The position numbers and the translations under genes were made by a program. DNA of 64,000 bases, taken from assembly GCF_017811155.1 (NCBI RefSeq), contig NZ_JACVCV010000001.1, forward strand, positions 248,001-312,000, read 5' to 3'. This DNA comes from Lunatimonas salinarum. GTDB taxonomy: Bacteria; Bacteroidota; Bacteroidia; Cytophagales; Cyclobacteriaceae. This document shows, in pieces, positions 42,553 through 55,606 of this stretch (the stretch's first letter is position 1; every line of letters starts with the position of its first letter). The notes beneath the pieces were generated by a model. It saw only the letters and a list, made by a program, of their open reading frames with translations. It was not told the origin of the DNA and ran no database searches.

Positions 42553-43719
42553 TTGAAAAAGCGATTTCTCCTCTTGATCATCTATCTGGCCTTTATCAGC
42601 CTAGGCCTCCCCGACTCCCTGCTTGGATCGGCATGGCCCGCCATGTTTGCATACCTGAGGGTACCGGTTGACTATGCGGGAATCATTTCCATGATCGTCG
42701 CAGCGGGGACCGTAATCTCCAGCCTTTTCAGCGGAAAGGTCATCAATCGTTTCGGTGTACCGCTGATTACCACTATCAGTGTATTTCTTACCGCGCTGGC
42801 ATTGATGGGATTCGCTTTTTCCGGTCAGTTTTTATACCTCTGTCTGCTGGCTGTACCGCTGGGGCTCGGTGCAGGAAGTGTAGATGCCGCATTGAACAAT
42901 TATGTGGCCCTCCACTACGAAGCGAGGCATATGAACTGGCTGCATAGTTTCTGGGGCGTTGGCGCGGCGGCAGGACCTATGATCATGGCGGCTTATCTGG
43001 CAAAAGGCGCTTCGTGGTCCAGTGGCTATGGTACGGTAGCTTGGATTCAACTGGTTTTGGTGTTCATCTTAGTGCTCTCGCTTCCGCTTTGGGTCAAAAG
43101 TCCGTCCAGCCATGATTCTAAACAGAAGACCGACGCAATCGCCCAGAATTCCCGCCTACTGGCCCTACCCGGGCTAAAGGAGGCTTTGGTGGTGTTCTTT
43201 TGCTATTGTACCGTAGAAGCTACCTTTGGACTTTGGGGGGCGAGCTACTTGGTACTTGAAAGGAGTTATGAACCCGATCAGGCCGCAAGGCTTACCTCCC
43301 TGTATTTTTTGGGTATCACCATAGGAAGGTTTTTATCCGGCTTTTTGACCGCCCATTTGACCAATCGGCAGCTGGTCTATGCCGGGCAAGGGGTGATCGG
43401 GATCGGCTTGGGATTGCTCTTCCTGCCGTTTGAAACTACGATTGTTCCCGGCTTCCTTTTGGTTGGGTTAGGCTGTGCACCGATTTTCCCGAGCTTGCTG
43501 CACGAAACTCCGGTCAATTTTGGAGAGAAAAACTCCCAAACCATCATGGGATTCCAAATGGCTAGTGCCTATGTGGGAATCACGCTCATGCCCTTCCTAT
43601 TCGGCAAAATCGCCGTATATACCGGTTACCATTTTCTTTTGGGATTTTTGGTACTATTTCTGCTTTTGATTTTTGGAATGACACGGCGGATGGACCAAAA
43701 GGTGAAAATGGGAAAGTAG
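42553..43719 (+). CDS. MFS transporter, probable sugar or sugar-acid importer
   Basis: 388 residues from a TTG codon at 42553; no suitable ATG lies nearby. About 12 membrane helices with MFS features: helix 1 LAFISLGLPDSLLGSAWPAM, loop 2-3 FSGKVINRFGVPL, and FLSGFLTAHLTNRQL in the second half. It resembles the FucP/YfkL-like MFS branch. Its position after uxaB suggests uptake of a uronate or a sugar released by the adjacent operon. The stop is followed 13 bp later by a run of nine Cs (43732-43740). Confidence 0.82.
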   Translation: MKKRFLLLIIYLAFISLGLPDSLLGSAWPAMFAYLRVPVDYAGIISMIVAAGTVISSLFSGKVINRFGVPLITTISVFLTALALMGFAFSGQFLYLCLLAVPLGLGAGSVDAALNNYVALHYEARHMNWLHSFWGVGAAAGPMIMAAYLAKGASWSSGYGTVAWIQLVLVFILVLSLPLWVKSPSSHDSKQKTDAIAQNSRLLALPGLKEALVVFFCYCTVEATFGLWGASYLVLERSYEPDQAARLTSLYFLGITIGRFLSGFLTAHLTNRQLVYAGQGVIGIGLGLLFLPFETTIVPGFLLVGLGCAPIFPSLLHETPVNFGEKNSQTIMGFQMASAYVGITLMPFLFGKIAVYTGYHFLLGFLVLFLLLIFGMTRRMDQKVKMGK

Positions 43720-43803: not shown

Positions 43804-44085
43804 TTATAGGCAACCCAAATCGAAAACAATCTCAGTATCTGTAACTTCAATTATCTGTGGATTTGCGTTTCGTATTTCCATAACAACAGGAATTAAGACC
43901 ATTTCTTCAAACCAATCTTCATGCTTATCATTGACCTTAAAACCTTTGTAGTTTTTATCTCTACCATACAATGTAATGTACTTACCGTCATAAACCAATC
44001 TATACCCACCTGCAAAGTAATCAAAAATAGGTAGGCGTATAACGCGAGTTAGGCAAAATGCCTGTTCATTAAATCTATTTGACAT
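43804..44085 (-). CDS. Hypothetical protein, 93 residues, unknown
   Basis: No family recognised. A soluble mixed alpha/beta composition with motifs GGYRLVYDGKYITLYGRD and EEMVLIPVVMEIRN. The middle has many aromatic and charged residues. No signal or membrane segment. Codon use is more AT-rich than the carbohydrate genes to its left. It is a plausible real gene in an accessory patch, 256 bp downstream of the double-glycine peptide gene on the same strand. Confidence 0.5.
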   Translation of the reverse strand: MSNRFNEQAFCLTRVIRLPIFDYFAGGYRLVYDGKYITLYGRDKNYKGFKVNDKHEDWFEEMVLIPVVMEIRNANPQIIEVTDTEIVFDLGCL

Positions 44086-44341: not shown

Positions 44342-44506
44342 CTAGGATCCAGCGGTACCTAAAATAAATCCACCATTCACTGTTGTACCTGCATCAAAAC
44401 TCTCATTAAAATTAACCAAAATCCCTCCGTTGATATTCATAAGTTCCATCTTGGGATCAACCCACTCTTTTTTACGTGCTTTGCTTACTGTTTTTTCGCT
44501 TTCCAT
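44342..44506 (-). CDS. Candidate double-glycine leader peptide (RiPP/bacteriocin-like precursor)
   Basis: 54 residues. A charged N-terminal leader (MESEKTVSKARKKEW) is followed by WVDPKM at 15-20 and then ELMNINGG at 21-28. That last segment fits the double-glycine leader consensus ELxxIxGG exactly, so cleavage after Gly28 would release a 26-residue, cysteine-free peptide, rich in Gly, Asn and hydrophobics, ending GFILGTAGS. The NGG motif recurs at 26-28 and 44-46. WxxPxM also resembles the YxxPxL motif recognised by RiPP-recognition elements, and Gly27 or Gly28 to Glu35 would fit a 9- or 8-residue macrolactam, but the lasso-type penultimate Thr is missing. No modification enzyme, C39 peptidase or ABC exporter is nearby. 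The call rests on motif and reading frame only. Confidence 0.55.
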   Translation of the reverse strand: MESEKTVSKARKKEWVDPKMELMNINGGILVNFNESFDAGTTVNGGFILGTAGS

Positions 44507-44535
44507 AATAGTTTAATTTTGAAGAATACTACTTA

Positions 44536-44760
44536 TTTAGTTGACCTAGCCAACGTTTTGGTAATGCCGCTCCGGTTTTTATCGAGCAGTGCGGTAGAAT
44601 AGATGTTCGGTCTGAACGGTATCCTGCTGCCTTCGGGTTGTACTTCCCGGCTAGGGGTTTCGCCCGAGTGATACACCCCTCCCCGGCGATGCCCGCCCGC
44701 TGTCAGTGTTAAGGGGCGCCTGCCCAGCTTTAATGGATTATCCTTTTTCAGATATTTTAT
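44536..44760 (-). other. GC-rich open block of unknown origin
   Basis: Open for 75 codons on the minus strand between a stop at 44763-44761 and a stop at 44535-44533, with no ATG in frame. It is much more GC-rich than the surrounding DNA. Translation (including GETPSREVQPEGSR and FRPNIYSTALLDKNRSG) matches no family I recognise. It contains CCCGAAGGC/GCCTTCGGG-type and GTTC-GAAC inverted segments. It may be a gene remnant or a structured leader of the peptide gene, which starts 30 bp downstream. Confidence 0.3.
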
Positions 44761-44969: not shown

Positions 44970-46607
44970 TCAAAACCTAGACAAAAAGTCATACAGATCC
45001 TGATCGCTGTGGGTTATATTTAATTTCCTTCTCAACCTGGTCTTGGCCATATTGAGGGTGGTTTTGCTTTGCCCGGTAAGTGCCGAAATTTCCCGGCTGT
45101 TCAAGTTTAGCCGAATTAACGCGCAAAGCCGCCGTTCGTTTGGCGTAAGGTCCGGAAAGGAATTCAACAGGTTATTGTAAAAATCTGTGTGCAAGTCCAA
45201 GAAGGACGTCTCGAATTCCGCAAGAATATTATCCTGATCAAGCTGACTCAATTCTCCGACAACGCTGCTGACTATTGCCTTTCCTTGCTTGGAAAATTCA
45301 TTTCTATTCCCTACCAGTTTATCTACCGTGTCTTTGACGATGCGAAGTCTTTTGGTTTCGTAAAGTAATTTGGTCGTAAGTTGTTTGCTTTTTTCTTGGA
45401 GCTTTGCCTCTAAGAGCTGCTTTTCCTGTTCCTTTTGTTTGGAAACGAGCGTTAGCTGCATCTTTTCCAAGCTGACCCGCTGATATCTTTTACGAATATT
45501 GAAGTATAGAAAAAGAAGTATCCCCAAAATCAGAAGGCTTAACAGCAAGAATAAAAAAAGGCTCTTATAGCTCTTTTCTGATTCCTCCACTAACGCTTCC
45601 TTTTCCAGGGCATGCATTTCATCCAGGCTTTGGGTCAATAAGTTTTTCTCCGCCTTACTTTGGTTGATTTGCTTGAATAATTGCTCCTTCTCCTCCAGAA
45701 AAAACAACGCAGAATCAAGCCTACCCGACTCCTTGTACAAGTTGGCCAATAAATCACTACAATTGTGCTGCACCGCTAATATTTCTCCGACCGCCGCTAG
45801 TTGATTGCATTCTCTGCCATAACGGATAGCCAAAGGGATATTACCCATTTTTTGGTAGGTTTCCGCCATATAGCTGTAGCTGGTAGCCAAATCCGGAGAA
45901 TTATTACTTTTAAATGCAATCTCTTCGGCAACCCCAAAAGCTTCGAGGGCTGCCTCGTAATTTTTCATTTGGAGGTAAACTAATCCGAGGTTATTGTAAA
46001 GGTACCCTAGATTCTTATTTTCGGGATCGAGTGTTCCGATTTCTTTAATTCCCGCTTCCAAAAAACTATACGCCCGCACCAGATCACCTTTTTCCCTGTA
46101 GATTATACCAAGATTATTGATGATCGCAGAAAGGGTCGGATAATCAGGTTCTGGAAGCTCCTTCAACATCTCCTCTACCTGAATAAAATATTCCTCGGCC
46201 GAGTCGTAATTCTCTAAGAATAAGTAATTGATTCCAATACCCAAAAGGGTACTGATCTGATCGATTTGGGGAAGGTCGACGGCTTCATTTAGGATTTCGT
46301 AACTTTTCACATAGTATTCAGAAGAAAGTTCCGCCAATCCCGCTGTAAAATAAACTCTACCATATTGATTGAAAACTTTGACTAAAAGGCCCGGTTTTTC
46401 CAATGAATCTGCATACCCCCTAGCCTGATCTACAAAATAAAGGGACTTCTTTAGATCTTTATTTTGAAAGGTACGGGATGAATCCAGAAAGGCAAAATAA
46501 CGTTTCACCATCAACGAATCCTGTGAAACAGTGTCATCGTTAGCGGCATGGGCTAACCCGCTCACCGCTATTAAAAATATATATAATAATAATTTAATGT
46601 AAATCAT
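44970..46607 (-). CDS. TPR protein with C-terminal LuxR-like HTH
   Basis: 545 residues from the ATG at 46607, giving a signal peptide (MIYIKLLLYIFLIAVSGLAHA). About 7-8 tetratricopeptide repeats span residues 50-330 (for example LYNNLGLVYLQMKNYEAALEAF). They are followed by a membrane helix (SLFLFLLLSLLILGILLFLYF), a coiled coil (about 380-440) and a C-terminal helix-turn-helix with LTPNERRLCALIRLNLNSRE and GQSKTTLNMAKTRLRRKLNI. This is the Bacteroidota one-component membrane regulator type: the TPR part senses in the periplasm and the HTH acts in the cytoplasm. Target unknown; it is nearest the peptide gene downstream. Confidence 0.85.
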   Translation of the reverse strand: MIYIKLLLYIFLIAVSGLAHAANDDTVSQDSLMVKRYFAFLDSSRTFQNKDLKKSLYFVDQARGYADSLEKPGLLVKVFNQYGRVYFTAGLAELSSEYYVKSYEILNEAVDLPQIDQISTLLGIGINYLFLENYDSAEEYFIQVEEMLKELPEPDYPTLSAIINNLGIIYREKGDLVRAYSFLEAGIKEIGTLDPENKNLGYLYNNLGLVYLQMKNYEAALEAFGVAEEIAFKSNNSPDLATSYSYMAETYQKMGNIPLAIRYGRECNQLAAVGEILAVQHNCSDLLANLYKESGRLDSALFFLEEKEQLFKQINQSKAEKNLLTQSLDEMHALEKEALVEESEKSYKSLFLFLLLSLLILGILLFLYFNIRKRYQRVSLEKMQLTLVSKQKEQEKQLLEAKLQEKSKQLTTKLLYETKRLRIVKDTVDKLVGNRNEFSKQGKAIVSSVVGELSQLDQDNILAEFETSFLDLHTDFYNNLLNSFPDLTPNERRLCALIRLNLNSREISALTGQSKTTLNMAKTRLRRKLNITHSDQDLYDFLSRF

Positions 46608-46883
46608 ATTTTTATACACTGATTTTTTTATTAATTGACCTAAAATAGTATTTACTTTTATTATTTCATACTTTTGGAATTTATAGAAAATAGAACAGTT
46701 CACCATTGGGGGGCAACTACTCTGACCCTAAAAATCCCACTACTAGTAAACACTGTGAACCATTAACGAATTCTACTGCAAAGAAGACAGTTGCTAATCC
46801 ATCCCTGGGCTTTGAATAATGAAATGATCATTTTTGTAAACAAAAAGACCATACAGTACGCTTCATTTACGTTATATTTAGGC

Positions 46884-49825: not shown

Positions 49826-52800
49826 ATGATCTTTCGCGTCTCGACTAACTTCAAAAAATTCATTGAAACTATTTTTGGAATGGTTTACCGGTTTTTGACA
49901 TATAGTTCCTTTTTCAGACGCGGTCTCGTTGGGGTTTTGGGAGTTTTTTTGACTGCATTGACCCTATATCATTCAATCGGCGGCGGCGAGTTTACATTTG
50001 ACACCATTGTAATTACCGGTCAGAGACCACAGCTTGCAATGCTATATCGCGAAGAGCTGACTATAGATTTGTCGTTTATCGAATATACCTATAGCGGCAG
50101 TGATGGATTGACCCTTTCCATTTTGCCAGGGGATGGATATGACGTGTTGCCAAATAATCAGATAGTTCCTACGGTTACCTATATCCCAAGTTGGCCTGCC
50201 GAAGGTGTCCGTATTCTTGTAAATGTACAACTAAGCGACGGTACGGATCAAAGCAATGTATTTCCAATGGAAATAGTGGTAATTCCCCCTATACTTGCAT
50301 TGAACTACAATGAAAGTAGCTGTCAGGGTACAATAAGCATTACGGCATCCGCCTATAAGCCAACGCTTACCAGCGTGGTTTCCTTTCCCTTTATCTTTCA
50401 ACTTTTCGACAGCGAGGGTAATTTATTTGACGAACGTATTGTAACCAACGGATCCCCGTTCGACCAAAGTGCCACGGCGACCTTCGGGACGCTTGCCAAT
50501 CCATTGGATCGGGAAGAGCCCTATCGGCTGGTGGTAATAGACAGATTGGGTAGAGTGTATGAACGGGCTGCGGGGCCTTTGGGACAGGCCTACTCCTTGG
50601 ATATCGCCATGAATTTTAGCGGGTTGGTCTGCCCGGGAGACAATACCGGCATAGCAGAATTTGTCATCAACAATGCTGCGTTGCCCCTTTTGGAGTTTTT
50701 GGTATATGACCAAAACGACAACTTGGTGACCATGGACTACACGATACAGTCTCAAGAGGGAGGGCTGGTGGTAGCACAGGTACAAAACCTCCTACCAGGA
50801 AGCTACCGGGTAGAAATCCGCGACAGGTTTACCTGCGAAGGAGGCAGGGAGTTTGAGCTTGTCATACCTAATCCCCTTAGCTTCGAGTCGGATATCACAC
50901 CCATTACCTGTCCGGAAAACTTTGATGGTTCCATCCGTCTGGACATCACTGGTGGTTGGTCAGAGCCGTTTCCGGGTAATCTCCGAGAGCAATGGACTAC
51001 TTATGGTGTCCTTTGGTACAGTCAGTCTGGGGAGCTCCTGGGGAATTCTGAAAGTAACTTTATCTTAGATGGAGCGGGTGAAATCGTCGGTGTGCGAAAC
51101 GAACTATCAGGACTGACATCCGGGAGTTACTATGCAGAAATTTACGACCGAGGGCGGGTGTTTGAGTTTCCCGAATCGGATCCGCTGGTATGTATTACAC
51201 GAACGCCTCTTTTCGAAATCGAAGGGCCTGAGGTGCTGCGATTAAACAGCCAATTTTCCAATATATCCTGCTTTGGGCAGCAGGATGGGTTTATTTCCAT
51301 TGATCCCACCGGCGGTGTGGGCACTTATCAGATCACTTGGTACAGAGGTAATTTTGTCGATTTACTGAATCCCGATCCAATCGGATTGACCGTATTTGCG
51401 CCACCTGCCGGAACCACACCGATGGAGCGAGAAAATTTACCGGGTGGAGACTATGCCATTTTACTGCGTGATGAAAACGGCTGCTTTATTGCTGAAAATT
51501 TCACCATTGAAGAGCCTGCAGAACTGGCCATTAGTGAAAATCCCGATGAACGCGTAAACATTCTTTGTTTCGGCGAAACGTCCGGTTCATTTACGCTAGC
51601 TATCGATCAAGCTTCTACGGCGCCGTTTTTAGTGCAGATTCATGAGACAGGAGAGGAACCCGGTTCTACGCAAACCCTTACCAGAAACGAAGAAGGCCCT
51701 TTCGTCGTATCGAATCTGGCAGCTGGGGAATATTCCGTCATTGTCACTGACGCACGGGGATGTACAGAGGAAATCGAAGGCATCGAACTTACGCAGCCTT
51801 CGCAAGAACTTAGGATAGAAGGGCTAAGAACATCCAGGTTTGGCGATTATCAGATTAGCTGCTTTGGAGCAACGGATGGGTTTATTGACCTTTTCGTTAC
51901 CGGTGGAGTGGGTGATTACACATTTTCTTGGACAGGGCCCAACGGATTCACGGCAGACACGGAGACAATTTCCGGCGTTTCCGGTGGTACGTATGTCTTT
52001 GTCGTCACCGATGAAAATGGCTGTTCTGAATCCTTTGGGCAGCTTACGCTTGAGCAACCACCCCAACTAACGGTCAGTTCGGAGGTATCTGATTTCAACG
52101 GTTTTCAAATCAGCTGTCACGGTGCGAATGACGGCTATATCCGAAATGTGGTTCAGGGTGGCAGCGGCAGTTACTATGTAGAATGGACCGGTCCGAATGG
52201 TTTTTCTTCTACAGAGGCTGATATCAGTGGTCTTACACCGGGTACTTACGAACTTACCATTTCCGACGATAATGGATGCGCTTTAGAGCCTAGAATCTTC
52301 GAGATAAACGAGCCGGATCCGTTGGAAATTGAAGAGGACGAGTCGCTGCGTGAAGACGTTGGCTGCTTCGGACAGGAAACCGGTGTCATTCATGTTGATT
52401 TCTTGTCCTCGTCCGTAGGCCCCTACGTGATTGAATTGGTTGAATCCGAGTCTCCCCTTCCTGTTCGTAGTATATCGGGGTTTGATGGAAGCAGCTATAC
52501 CTTCGAAAACCTATCCGCTGGGCTGTATACCGTGCGGGTCATAGATGCCAACGGGTGCCAAGATACTTTGGAAGAAATCCCTATCATCCAACCCGAAAAT
52601 GGATTGGAGCTGAGCAACCTAGTAGTTTCGAATTTCAATGGTTTTGAAATATCTTGCCATGGTGCCGCAGATGGAAGCATTTCGTATATATTAACCGGAA
52701 GTCAAGGAGACGTAAGCTACAGTTGGCAGGGACTTGACGGCTTTACCTCCAACTCTCCTACCCTTACCGGTCTAGGTCCTGGAGAATACCGGCTGCTAGT

Positions 52801-55606
52801 TGAAGACGAGAGTGGATGTACTTTGGAAGAACTTTTTACACTCACCGAACCCGATCCCCTGGTACTTAGCGACGACGTCTCAGATTACAATGGTTTTCAG
52901 ATACAATGCAACGGCGCATCAGATGGTTTTATCAGATTGTTGCCGTCGGGTGGAGCCCCTGAATACCAGTTTAGCTGGACAGGTGACAATGGATTCGTGA
53001 GCGATGCTGCCAACCTCGAAAATATTCCGGCAGGCACCTACATTGTGACCATCACCGATTTGAATGGCTGCCAAATCACCGAAACCTACCAAATCACCGA
53101 GCCCGAAAGCCTAGAGATCACGGAATACGTAGACCTCAGGCAAAATGTACAATGCTTTGGAGAAAGCAACGGGGAGATTCACGTAGAGATCACCCGCCCC
53201 TCCGCAGGCCCATATAACTACTACATTCAGGTGGAAGGCGAAGCACTAGGCAGTGCCGGTTCAGCCGAGAATCTACTTGATACAGAATGGGTATTCCGCA
53301 ACCTCCCGGCAGGCATCTACGAAGTGACGGTGGTGGATATAAACGGCTGCACCCAGTCCATCGATGGATTGGAAATCACCCAACCTGAAACGGGAATTGC
53401 CATTTCTGAAGTACGTGTGGAGGACTACAACGGTTTTCAGATATCCTGTTTTGGGGCAAATGATGGCAGAATCGAAGTAGTGCTTTCCGGGGGAACGGGA
53501 GATTACACGTATTCCTGGACCGGACCTAATGGATTTACCGCGTCCAGTCCGTCCATTGAAACCCTCCTACCTGGAAGCTATGAACTGACCATCAGCGATG
53601 ACAATGGTTGCGTGGTGGAAACGGGCCCCATTGATATCATCGAACCGGCACCTGTTTCCCTGACCGAAACGCTATCTGACTATAACGGATTTTCGGTTAG
53701 TTGCTTTGGAGGAAATGATGGATTTATCGACCTAGACCTGGGAGGTGGTACTGACACCTACACCATCGAATGGAACGGCCCGAATGGGTTTACCTCCGGA
53801 GATCGGCGGATCGAAAACCTTCCGGCAGGCACCTACGCCGTTTTAGTTACCGACGAAAATGAATGCGTCATTGCCGGCACCTTTGAGTTAACGGAGCCCC
53901 CTCTCCTGGAAGCGTCGGCTACTGCCGTGGTGGATGTCCTCTGCCATGGGCAGAATACGGGTGCGATAAGCCTAAACATGTCAGGAGGCGTATCTGACAA
54001 CTATTCTTTTGCTTGGTTCAGGGATGGCAATCTGACGAATGAAATCGATCAGAACCCTGCCAATTTATTTGCGGGAAATTACACGGTGATCGTTTCCGAT
54101 GACAATGGTTGTCAAGTGACGTTGGACAACCTAGTGATTCTGGAGCCGCCTACTCCGTTAACACTATCACTTACCGCAACGGAGGTTAGCTGCTATAACG
54201 CAAACGATGGAAGCATTACTTCCGAAATCAACGGGGGAGTTGCCCCTTACCAGATAAGTTGGAATTTTGGATCCATTCAGCCAAATCTAACCGGACTGGG
54301 CCCTGGATTATATGAGCTGACGGTGATCGATGCCAACGGATGTATGACGGTAGAAGCCGTGACCATTCCCGAGGTTCCTGTATTCGATGTAGATCCGGAG
54401 GTAGGGCAGGTGACTTGTTTTGGTGAGAATGATGGGTATATCAACCTGAATCTGGTAGGTGGTCAACGGCCTGTTCGTGCCATCTGGGACCACGGACCTG
54501 AAGGTGCTGCATTGTTTAACCTGCCTCCCGGCGAGTACGGTGTGACGATCACCGAAGAGGCTGGATGCGTGATACGTAGGGAATTCATTATTACAGAGCC
54601 AGATATCCTGATCGTCACAGGCATCGTGGAAGATGCGCTGGCATGTGACAATGGGCAGAGCGGCAGCATCAACCTCGTGGTTTCTGGCGGAAGGCCTCCG
54701 TTTCAATTTCGGTGGAGCAATGGAGCGGAAACGCAAAATATCCAAAACCTTTCTTCTGGACAGTATGCCGTTGAAGTATTGGACAGCGCGGGTTGCTTTG
54801 CCACGCAGCGGTTTCAGGTACGTAGGCCGCGTCCCATTGAGGTTTCCACCGTTCAATACCAAGAAGCCCAATGCGAACCAAGGGAAATTAAAACCGTATT
54901 CGAGCTGAATATCGATGGTGGGGTGGCTCCCTACACGATTCAATGGAGCAGCGGACAGGTATCCAACGATGGATACCGAATGGAATCCGAAGAACCTGGT
55001 CTTTATACTGTCACGGTCACTGACGCAGCAGGCTGCCAATATGTGGAATCCCATGAAGTTGCCAATAGCCGAGTGGTAATCGCCGGAGAGTACCGTTCCC
55101 AGTCGTTTCTTCAATATCAGGCCCACTTGGTTAATTTTGACATGGAGTTTATCAACCAAAGCAGCGGGGATATCAGAAGTTTCTATTGGGACTTTGGCGA
55201 TGGCAATGCCAGCGATGAGGCGAACCCGGTGCATCGGTACCAATCAGAAGGTACTTATGACGTGACCTTACGGGCTGTGGATGCGTTTGAGTGTGAGCAC
55301 ATTTTCCCCATGCAGATTACCATACTCGACCATTTTATGATGGTGCCAAACATCTTCAGTCCCAATGCAGATGGCATGAACGACTACTTTGTTCCGAAAT
55401 TCCTGCAGGTTGCAAGTATGGACTTCCGAATAATGAACAAATGGGGTGAGATTGTCTTTCATTCCAATGAATTACAGACAGTGGGTTGGGATGGGCGACT
55501 AAACGGCGAAGAGGCCATACCGGGGAATTACGTGTATCAAGTAAAATATAGCACGATGGATGGAAGGCCTTTTACCAAAACAGGGGTATTTTTACTGGTA
55601 AGATGA
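49826..55606 (+). CDS. SprB-like gliding adhesin with T9SS type B sorting domain
   Basis: 1926 residues. N-terminal hydrophobic export segment (FRRGLVGVLGVFLTALTLYHS; a later ATG at 49880 is an alternative start). About 17 SprB-type repeats follow, each with C[FH]G..DG.I.....GG...Y...W.GPNGF and a DxNGC end. Three of these groups form a higher-order tandem unit of about 263-266 residues (from Cys codons at 51566, 52364, 53153 and 53942). Near the C-terminus is a PKD domain (SFYWDFGDGNASDEANPVH). Last, a gliding-motility-associated type B sorting domain (IFSPNADGMNDYFVP, MNKWGEIVFHSNE, VGWDGRLNGE). In Flavobacterium and relatives such adhesins are exported by T9SS and moved along the surface. 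The stop overlaps the SprF-like gene. Confidence 0.92.
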   Translation: MIFRVSTNFKKFIETIFGMVYRFLTYSSFFRRGLVGVLGVFLTALTLYHSIGGGEFTFDTIVITGQRPQLAMLYREELTIDLSFIEYTYSGSDGLTLSILPGDGYDVLPNNQIVPTVTYIPSWPAEGVRILVNVQLSDGTDQSNVFPMEIVVIPPILALNYNESSCQGTISITASAYKPTLTSVVSFPFIFQLFDSEGNLFDERIVTNGSPFDQSATATFGTLANPLDREEPYRLVVIDRLGRVYERAAGPLGQAYSLDIAMNFSGLVCPGDNTGIAEFVINNAALPLLEFLVYDQNDNLVTMDYTIQSQEGGLVVAQVQNLLPGSYRVEIRDRFTCEGGREFELVIPNPLSFESDITPITCPENFDGSIRLDITGGWSEPFPGNLREQWTTYGVLWYSQSGELLGNSESNFILDGAGEIVGVRNELSGLTSGSYYAEIYDRGRVFEFPESDPLVCITRTPLFEIEGPEVLRLNSQFSNISCFGQQDGFISIDPTGGVGTYQITWYRGNFVDLLNPDPIGLTVFAPPAGTTPMERENLPGGDYAILLRDENGCFIAENFTIEEPAELAISENPDERVNILCFGETSGSFTLAIDQASTAPFLVQIHETGEEPGSTQTLTRNEEGPFVVSNLAAGEYSVIVTDARGCTEEIEGIELTQPSQELRIEGLRTSRFGDYQISCFGATDGFIDLFVTGGVGDYTFSWTGPNGFTADTETISGVSGGTYVFVVTDENGCSESFGQLTLEQPPQLTVSSEVSDFNGFQISCHGANDGYIRNVVQGGSGSYYVEWTGPNGFSSTEADISGLTPGTYELTISDDNGCALEPRIFEINEPDPLEIEEDESLREDVGCFGQETGVIHVDFLSSSVGPYVIELVESESPLPVRSISGFDGSSYTFENLSAGLYTVRVIDANGCQDTLEEIPIIQPENGLELSNLVVSNFNGFEISCHGAADGSISYILTGSQGDVSYSWQGLDGFTSNSPTLTGLGPGEYRLLVEDESGCTLEELFTLTEPDPLVLSDDVSDYNGFQIQCNGASDGFIRLLPSGGAPEYQFSWTGDNGFVSDAANLENIPAGTYIVTITDLNGCQITETYQITEPESLEITEYVDLRQNVQCFGESNGEIHVEITRPSAGPYNYYIQVEGEALGSAGSAENLLDTEWVFRNLPAGIYEVTVVDINGCTQSIDGLEITQPETGIAISEVRVEDYNGFQISCFGANDGRIEVVLSGGTGDYTYSWTGPNGFTASSPSIETLLPGSYELTISDDNGCVVETGPIDIIEPAPVSLTETLSDYNGFSVSCFGGNDGFIDLDLGGGTDTYTIEWNGPNGFTSGDRRIENLPAGTYAVLVTDENECVIAGTFELTEPPLLEASATAVVDVLCHGQNTGAISLNMSGGVSDNYSFAWFRDGNLTNEIDQNPANLFAGNYTVIVSDDNGCQVTLDNLVILEPPTPLTLSLTATEVSCYNANDGSITSEINGGVAPYQISWNFGSIQPNLTGLGPGLYELTVIDANGCMTVEAVTIPEVPVFDVDPEVGQVTCFGENDGYINLNLVGGQRPVRAIWDHGPEGAALFNLPPGEYGVTITEEAGCVIRREFIITEPDILIVTGIVEDALACDNGQSGSINLVVSGGRPPFQFRWSNGAETQNIQNLSSGQYAVEVLDSAGCFATQRFQVRRPRPIEVSTVQYQEAQCEPREIKTVFELNIDGGVAPYTIQWSSGQVSNDGYRMESEEPGLYTVTVTDAAGCQYVESHEVANSRVVIAGEYRSQSFLQYQAHLVNFDMEFINQSSGDIRSFYWDFGDGNASDEANPVHRYQSEGTYDVTLRAVDAFECEHIFPMQITILDHFMMVPNIFSPNADGMNDYFVPKFLQVASMDFRIMNKWGEIVFHSNELQTVGWDGRLNGEEAIPGNYVYQVKYSTMDGRPFTKTGVFLLVR

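What the first reader, a model, noticed from the sequence alone, without database searches (positions are those of the whole stretch)
44342..44506. Unlisted double-glycine peptide: candidate RiPP or bacteriocin precursor
A 54-codon gene has ELMNINGG, an exact fit to the ELxxIxGG leader cleavage consensus, preceded by a charged leader with WVDPKM (similar to the YxxPxL motif bound by RiPP recognition elements). It is followed by a 26-residue Gly/Asn-rich, cysteine-free core with Glu35 placed to close an 8- or 9-residue ring to Gly28 or Gly27. No maturase is adjacent, so enzymes may act in trans.
Basis: partly seen in the sequence, partly recalled or inferred. Interest (0 to 1): 0.65.

Follow-up and report, generated by a model that had tools for sequence, protein, structure and literature searches.

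The report
Lasso peptide precursor, matured in trans
This tiny gene most likely encodes the raw material of a lasso (knotted) peptide whose processing enzymes sit far away in the genome and appear to serve several scattered precursor genes, which is an unusual layout for this class of natural product.

Summary
The 54-codon ORF is real and lies on the minus strand (44506 to 44342). It belongs to a family of short peptides: I collected 27 members in 7 genomes. They share WxxP 13 residues before an invariant Gly, Glu at core position 8 (23 of 27; at 7 or 9 in the other 4), no core Cys, and C-terminal Ser in 26 of 27. That is the layout of a lasso precursor closing a Gly1-Glu8 ring, not of a double-glycine/C39 peptide: the first Gly of "GG" is kept in 14 of 27. 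In four genomes (three other genera) the same peptides sit in compact lasso clusters: cyclase, ABC exporter, HprK-like gene, B1, B2. In the window's genus the set is split: one B1/B2 locus (C89 here), a matching cyclase alone (C100), precursors scattered over several loci, some beside sulfotransferase, beta-hydroxylase, methyltransferase or glycosyltransferase-like genes. The window gene is at least 212 kb from these enzymes. Product formation is inferred, not shown. New variant of a known kind.

The parts
44342..44506 (-). Lasso-peptide precursor gene (54 codons plus stop)
   Evidence: member of a 27-sequence family; K13, W15, P18, G28 invariant, E35 nearly so
44426..44506 (-). Leader peptide, residues 1-27
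   Evidence: Val/Ile at -3 in 27 of 27, no Thr at -2, 13 residues from Trp to core Gly in all 27
44447..44464 (-). WVDPKM, the [Y/W]xxPx[hydrophobic]-type motif expected to bind the B1 RRE
   Evidence: motif in PMC13381572 passages; the B1 profile matches solved lasso RREs
44345..44425 (-). Predicted core, Gly28-Ser54 (27 residues)
44402..44425 (-). Predicted 8-residue macrolactam ring, Gly28 (core 1) to Glu35 (core 8)
   Evidence: Gly1 27 of 27, Glu8 23 of 27
44345..44347 (-). C-terminal Ser54, candidate phosphorylation site of the HprK-like gene product(s) of C89
   Evidence: C-terminal Ser in 26 of 27; HprK-like genes in the maturase locus, sub-threshold family matches only; paeninodin precedent

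Best explanation
The gene encodes a lasso-peptide precursor that is processed in trans. Shown by sequence: the precursor family, its conserved motifs, and a lasso enzyme set in the same genome. Inferred: the B1 RRE (G000:C89) binds the WVDPKM motif. The B2 transglutaminase-like protease next to B1 cuts before Gly28. An HprK-like kinase of the same locus phosphorylates the C-terminal Ser54 before cyclisation, as in paeninodin. The lone lasso cyclase A (G000:C100), an Asn-synthetase homologue, adenylates Glu35 and joins it to the amine of Gly28, threading the tail through the 8-residue ring. The precursor genes have spread away from the enzymes in this genus, and one B1/B2 pair would serve all of them. 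The confidence below is for 'lasso precursor matured in trans', in either cleavage register (see the Gly27 rival).
For: Precursor family in 5 of 148 family genomes by HMM. All 5 are among the 10 of 148 genomes with a lasso B2 (hypergeometric 4.6e-7 by genome, 3.7e-4 by genus). That profile missed two B2-bearing genomes, G105 and G148, in which I read members beside the B2 genes; both show Gly1 and Glu8, so 7 of the 10 B2 genomes carry the family. Compact clusters with cyclase, ABC, HprK-like gene, PqqD-like B1 and B2 around the precursor in G021, G105, G148 and G152; their B1s are 47-56% and their HprK-like proteins 44-57% identical to the own-genome ones. Own genome: one B2 match, over the NCBIfam cut-off (43.1 vs 33 bits), with Cys88 and His124 invariant in six B2s; B1 overlapping it; cyclase A with SGGxDS and 42-47% identity to the four compact-cluster cyclases. 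B1 profile matches PDB 9x90 (lasso PqqD chaperone), 5v1u (TbiB1), 6jx3 (TfuB1). Core spacing not reached in 100,000 shuffles. dN/dS about 0.27 against the G001 homologue over 30 codons (small sample).
Against: No product, transcript or enzyme assay. The leader lacks the usual Thr(-2), and its motif starts at -13 rather than -17 or -16. Lasso precursors are normally clustered with their enzymes. The dedicated ABC exporter of the compact clusters has no equivalent in G000, G001 or G002 (best 180.5 bits against 1049 in G021), so export is unexplained. B1 (44.7 vs 80) and cyclase A (205 vs 525) score far below the NCBIfam 'exception' cut-offs, the HprK-like genes far below theirs, and the same holds in G105, G148 and G152. 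I set the type A rows apart from type B by eye, so the 27 of 27 Gly1 is partly by choice; pooling all 37, Gly1 is 31 of 37 and Asp/Glu at core 7-9 is 37 of 37. Three of the ten B2 genomes show no member of this precursor family: G073 and G095 have other, canonical-looking precursors, and in the short G153 contig I saw none. The flanking regulator has only partial, weak matches in G001 and G002 (longest 371 residues at 25%), so I could not place this locus there.
Confidence: 0.8

Rival explanations
1. Double-glycine-leader bacteriocin or signal peptide cleaved and exported by a C39 peptidase/ABC transporter.
For: ELMNINGG fits the consensus; a C39 ABC transporter exists in the genome at C89:115144 (neighbourhood); the only NCBIfam match of the peptide, sub-threshold, is to a class IIb bacteriocin leader (14.5 vs 21.5 bits).
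Against: The -2 Gly expected for C39 cleavage is kept in only 14 of 27 relatives. G105 and G152 carry such precursors and have no C39 hit; G148 was not tested. A regex scan for small Gly-Gly/Ala/Ser ORFs around the C39 gene listed one 45-aa ORF, which I did not follow up. Glu8 and C-terminal Ser conservation stay unexplained.
Confidence: 0.06
2. A register variant of the best explanation: lasso precursor with cleavage one residue earlier. The core begins at Gly27, Val/Ile is the penultimate leader residue, and a 9-residue ring closes Gly27-Glu35.
For: Val/Ile at the resulting -2 is invariant (27 of 27), and an Ile(-2) lasso leader is experimentally known (PMC10368454, passages).
Against: Core residue 1 would then be Gly, Ser, Asn or Thr, while the invariant Gly would sit at position 2. 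From recall, Asn and Thr are not known as residue 1 of a lasso peptide.
Confidence: 0.2
3. Another RRE-dependent RiPP or a simple non-threaded macrolactam rather than a lasso.
For: The topology cannot be read from sequence; sister 'type B' peptides, some beside the second cyclase, have an acid at core 7-8 but mostly no Gly1.
Against: B1, B2 and cyclase A of these genomes match lasso family models best in NCBIfam, though B1 and cyclase are below the cut-offs.
Confidence: 0.1
4. Unprocessed relic: an orphan copy left after cluster break-up.
For: Absence of adjacent enzymes; no dedicated exporter in the three genomes of the genus.
Against: All key residues intact; dN/dS about 0.27 and 0.35 in two homologous pairs; three dispersed precursor loci keep their position between species of the genus, though the window locus itself was not seen in another species.
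Confidence: 0.1

Closest known systems
Paeninodin/pseudomycoidin-type lasso peptide clusters (A, K, C, B1, B2, D, with N or sulfotransferase genes)
   Same: WxxPx leader motif, discrete PqqD-like B1, B2, cyclase, HprK-like gene, C-terminal Ser; sulfotransferase and nucleotidyltransferase genes reported in some such clusters, and PF14907 nucleotidyltransferases here in G105, G148, G152
   Different: Precursor far from the enzymes; leader 3-4 residues shorter between motif and core; no Thr(-2), Val/Ile(-3) instead; two cyclases per genome; dedicated exporter missing in the three genomes of the window's genus
BsfA (Bradymonas sediminis), lasso peptide with penultimate Ile in the leader
   Same: Non-Thr leader end, kinase-bearing cluster, B1-dependent processing, Gly1 ring with an acidic residue at 8 (Asp8)
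   Different: Clustered; YxxPxL at -17 to -12; Ile at -2, whereas here Val/Ile is at -3 if Gly28 is core 1
Double-glycine (C39) peptides
   Same: ELxxIxGG string in this one member
   Different: GG not conserved in the family; two carrier genomes without a C39 hit

Membership tests
Lasso peptides | Core with N-terminal Gly (or another small residue) and Asp/Glu at position 7-9 | tested here: met
   27 of 27 type A precursors; window: Gly28, Glu35
Lasso peptides | [Y/W]xxPx[hydrophobic] leader motif for B1 | tested here: met
   WVDPKM; Met/Ile/Leu at the last position in 26 of 27, Asn in 1; Met is not in the set [L/V/I/A/F/Y] quoted in PMC13381572
Lasso peptides | B1 RRE, B2 protease and cyclase in the producer | tested here: met
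   G000:C89 (B1, B2, cyclase B) and C100 (cyclase A); B2 over its cut-off, B1 and cyclases below theirs; the whole genome was not scanned for further B1 copies
Lasso peptides | Thr at leader -2 (usual, not universal: PMC10368454) | tested here: not met
   -2 is Asn in the window; Asn 12, Glu 7, Gln 3, others 5 of 27
Lasso peptides | Precursor clustered with maturases (usual, not defining) | tested here: not met
   Not for the window gene; met in G021, G105, G148, G152
Lasso peptides | Threaded macrolactam product | not testable with these tools
   needs mass spectrometry and a topology test
Phosphorylated (paeninodin-type) lasso peptides | HprK-like kinase and C-terminal Ser | tested here: inconclusive
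   Ser in 26 of 27; two HprK-like genes at L064 5481-6392 and 10803-11705, the latter 44-57% identical to those of the four compact clusters, but family matches are all below the cut-offs
C39 double-glycine peptides | Gly at -2 and Gly/Ala/Ser at -1 of the cleavage site (recalled definition) | tested here: not met
   met by this one member, but first Gly present in only 14 of 27 of the family
C39 double-glycine peptides | C39 peptidase/ABC transporter linked to the peptide | tested here: not met
   one in G000 on another contig; none found in G105 and G152

The most novel reading that the evidence does not exclude
A hub-and-spoke lasso system. One B1/B2 leader-processing hub serves two cyclases, A for Glu8 cores and a divergent B for Asp7 cores. 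Precursor genes are scattered over the chromosome as spokes, several beside their own candidate tailoring enzymes (sulfotransferase plus Asp/Asn beta-hydroxylase-like, FkbM methyltransferase, UDP-glycosyltransferase-like), so that one maturase set makes a family of differently decorated lasso peptides in one bacterium.
Probability: 0.4. Interest if true: 0.7.

Novelty: new variant of a known kind. Interest (0 to 1): 0.52.

Why it matters
From general knowledge, lasso genome mining starts from the enzymes and looks for precursors beside them, so precursors like this would be missed. If one distant enzyme set really matures scattered precursors, there is a hidden reserve of lasso peptides in such bacteria, a naturally permissive B1/B2 pair with a short leader useful for engineering, and a case of tailoring enzymes travelling with precursors rather than with the core pathway.

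Tried and rejected
Direct family look-up: no Pfam hit for the peptide; NCBIfam gave only a sub-threshold match to a class IIb bacteriocin leader (14.5 vs 21.5 bits), the GG-leader resemblance again.

The single genome-contig hit for the peptide (L021) is spurious: an 18-residue match inside a longer reading frame of an unrelated-looking protein. Of the hits with E above 0.1, some belong to the family (for example copies in G001, G002, G021 and G000); most of those lying in long frames were treated as chance without further test. Loci L034 (G003) and L035 (G035), fetched for such weak hits, gave no precursor that I recognised in the regex scan.

C39/double-glycine maturation: tested and not favoured.

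Promoter and terminator scans around the gene gave no more sites than shuffles, and Rfam gave two matches, both below their gathering scores. The flanking TPR/LuxR-type regulator (44970-46706) has only partial, weak matches in G001 and G002, so I did not make it part of the system. The 93-aa ORF at 43804-44085 has no family hit.

PDB sequence search with the B2 profile returned nothing; cyclase A returned four asparagine synthetases and a hydroxyamidotransferase, no lasso cyclase entry. G001 has a second, sub-threshold PF13471 match (22.5 vs 26 bits), not pursued. No structure prediction was run.

Literature: seven searches. In what I saw there is no description of lasso precursors dispersed away from one shared enzyme set, but for most papers I saw only the listing, the library holds open-licence papers only, and other wordings were not tried. 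Passages found by keyword were seen in PMC10368454, PMC8498205, PMC4289311, PMC13352647, PMC13381572 and PMC9266682; no paper was read whole. That Asn or Thr is unknown as residue 1 of a lasso peptide is recalled, not looked up.

Selection to state: the first 21 precursors were picked by me from a regex list that asked for a Lys-then-[WYF]xxP leader and an ATG start. Ten similar-leader peptides without the GG/SG-Glu pattern (type B) were counted apart. Two canonical-looking precursors (G073, G095) and one distant one (G431) were in neither set. The shuffle test used 26 sequences; the 27th (sixth G021 copy) was added afterwards.

Full report
What is there. The ORF at 44342-44506 is on the minus strand and encodes MESEKTVSKARKKEWVDPKMELMNINGGILVNFNESFDAGTTVNGGFILGTAGS. 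The neighbours of the gene are an MFS transporter (42553-43719, +), a 93-aa ORF without family hit, and a TPR/LuxR-type regulator (44970-46706, -). None is a RiPP maturase.

It belongs to a family. A search of 59 relatives and a regex reading of 14 fetched loci turned up many short ORFs of the form M..KK.W..PE[MI]....[VI].[GSNT]G......E...S, often two to six in a row. A profile of 21 found members in 5 of 148 genomes of the family: G000 (4 strong hits), G001 (8), G002 (6), G021 (6) and G152 (1); three weak hits in G000 and three in G002, of the type B kind where I looked, are not in these counts. Two further members, in G105 and G148, were missed by that profile and read next to their B2 genes. 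An updated profile searched in 395 genomes drawn from the phylum hit 4: G000, G105, G152 and, weakly, G431; whether the other carriers were in that draw is not shown.

What is conserved. In the 27 aligned sequences Lys13, Trp15, Pro18 and Gly28 (window numbering) are invariant and Glu35 nearly so. Counting from Gly28 as core residue 1: Gly1 27 of 27; Glu at 8 in 23, at 9 in 3, at 7 in 1; Val/Ile at -3 27 of 27; C-terminal Ser 26 of 27; no Cys in any core; core length 14-27. In 100,000 shuffles of 26 cores none reached the observed 22 Glu8 (mean 1.9). The first Gly of the apparent GG is Gly 14, Ser 8, Asn 3, Thr 2. The conserved unit is therefore not a double-glycine site but a Gly at the start of a segment with an acid seven residues on: the lasso layout. 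I separated type A from type B by eye; over all 37, Gly1 is 31 of 37 and an acid at core 7-9 is 37 of 37.

The enzymes elsewhere. In G021 six such precursors lie with a PqqD-like B1 (NCBIfam lasso_PqqD_Bac, E 2e-9, below its cut-off), B2 (lasso_biosyn_B2, over its cut-off), a lasso-type cyclase (E 1e-60, below its cut-off), an ABC transporter, a sulfotransferase and an HprK-like gene. G105, G148 and G152 have compact clusters of the same kind: cyclase, ABC, HprK-like gene, B1, B2, one precursor and a PF14907 nucleotidyltransferase. Their B1s are 47-52% and their HprK-like proteins 44-55% identical to the own-genome ones. Lasso B2 occurs in 10 of 148 family genomes, and all 5 genomes with HMM-detected precursors are among them (4.6e-7 by genome, 3.7e-4 by genus; the test ignores relatedness). 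With G105 and G148, 7 of the 10 carry the family.

The enzymes at home. In the own genome there is exactly one B2 match, at C89. Beside it are B1, a sulfotransferase, two HprK-like genes and a cyclase B. Cyclase A is alone on C100; it is 42-47% identical to the cyclases of the four compact clusters, whereas the cyclase Bs of the genus are 22-24% identical to the G021 enzyme. All seven cyclases compared keep SGGxDS. The B1 profile finds the solved lasso RREs 9x90, 5v1u (TbiB1) and 6jx3 (TfuB1). G001 and G002 have the same split, B1/B2/cyclase B in one place and cyclase A in another.

Distance. The window gene is 292 kb and 212 kb from the ends of its contig, and the enzymes are on other contigs, so they are at least that far away. 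If the gene is matured, it is matured in trans.

Dispersal. Three precursor loci keep their place between species of the genus. Locus I is C155 in G000, C68 in G001, C50 in G002, next to rimP/nusA/infB-like genes (names recalled from the sequences, not tested). In G000 and G001 it holds a sulfotransferase and an Asp/Asn beta-hydroxylase-like gene beside the precursors. Locus II is C78:492k in G000, C48 in G002 and C55 in G001; in G000 and G002 it has an FkbM methyltransferase and a UDP-glycosyltransferase-like gene, and in G001 the contig ends there. Locus III is C22 in G002 and C33 in G001, with a related glycosyltransferase-like gene (34% identity to that of locus II). That these genes tailor the peptides is a guess from position. 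The window precursor is closest to one in the G001 copy of locus II (49% identity), although it sits about 200 kb from locus II in its own genome; duplication and relocation is the simplest reading (inference). dN/dS was 0.27 over 30 codons for that pair (synonymous differences high) and 0.35 for the syntenic locus II pair: weak support for constraint.

Mechanism. Inferred steps: B1 binds WVDPKM; an HprK-like kinase phosphorylates Ser54, by analogy with paeninodin, where the C-terminal Ser of the precursor is the site (PMC8498205, PMC9266682, passages); B2 cuts before Gly28; cyclase A closes Gly28-Glu35 around the tail. The alternative start at Gly27 would put Val/Ile at -2, a position for which Ile is experimentally known (PMC10368454, passages), with a 9-residue ring; I hold it at about one in five. 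Export is open: the ABC transporter of the compact clusters has no counterpart in G000, G001 or G002 (180.5 bits at best, against 1049 for G021).

What is unusual. Canonical-looking relatives in the same family (G073, G095) have Thr(-2) and Trp at -16 (read). Type A has Trp at -13 and no Thr(-2). BsfA-type leaders have YxxPxL at -17 to -12. [Y/W]xxPx motifs, several precursors per cluster, kinases and sulfotransferases are all known in lasso clusters. What I did not find described, within seven searches of an open-licence library, is precursors scattered over the chromosome away from one shared B1/B2 pair with two cyclases.

Verdict. A real and probably functional lasso precursor, filed as a new variant of a known kind. 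No step has been shown biochemically.

Noticed in passing
L064 15798-18576 (+), L028 9122-9226 (+), L032 5016-9446 (+), L095 1438-1548 (-), L098 1435-1545 (-): A sister 'type B' precursor set with a similar leader start (often MKKEWxNPE) but Asp 19 residues after the Trp (9 of 10; 0 of 20,000 shuffles) and Gly1 in only 4 of 10; some lie near the divergent cyclase B. Ring chemistry unclear.
   Followed up: partly
window 44525-44569; L112 1501-1546; L113 1501-1542: Just upstream of the precursor, about 45 bases match at 83% the very ends of two G001 contigs, suggesting a repeat boundary; one of these contig ends carries a RAYT-like ORF (resemblance recalled; the tested frame gave no Pfam hit).
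   Followed up: partly
G001 C55, C25; G002 C50, C39; G000 C89, C144: Six precursor copies (type A or B) lie within about 0.7 kb of contig ends, hinting at repeated or tandem precursor arrays that break the assemblies.
   Followed up: no
L022 8625-10189: Two precursors flank a sulfotransferase-like (PF03567) and an Asp/Asn beta-hydroxylase-like (PF05118) gene; possible dedicated tailoring.
   Followed up: partly
L133 1468-1575 (-): A precursor-like peptide (METKKQWILPEV...) beside a protein 39% identical to the HprK-like protein of the maturase locus, in G431, a genome of another family in the class.
   Followed up: partly
L137 7360-10948 (-): The genome's single C39 peptidase/ABC transporter match sits beside a glycosyltransferase-like gene with weak UDPGT/EryCIII matches; its substrate is unknown.
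   Followed up: no
window 49826-55606 (+): 1926-aa repetitive surface-type protein with many similar repeats and a C-terminal gliding/T9SS-like end (by eye).
   Followed up: no
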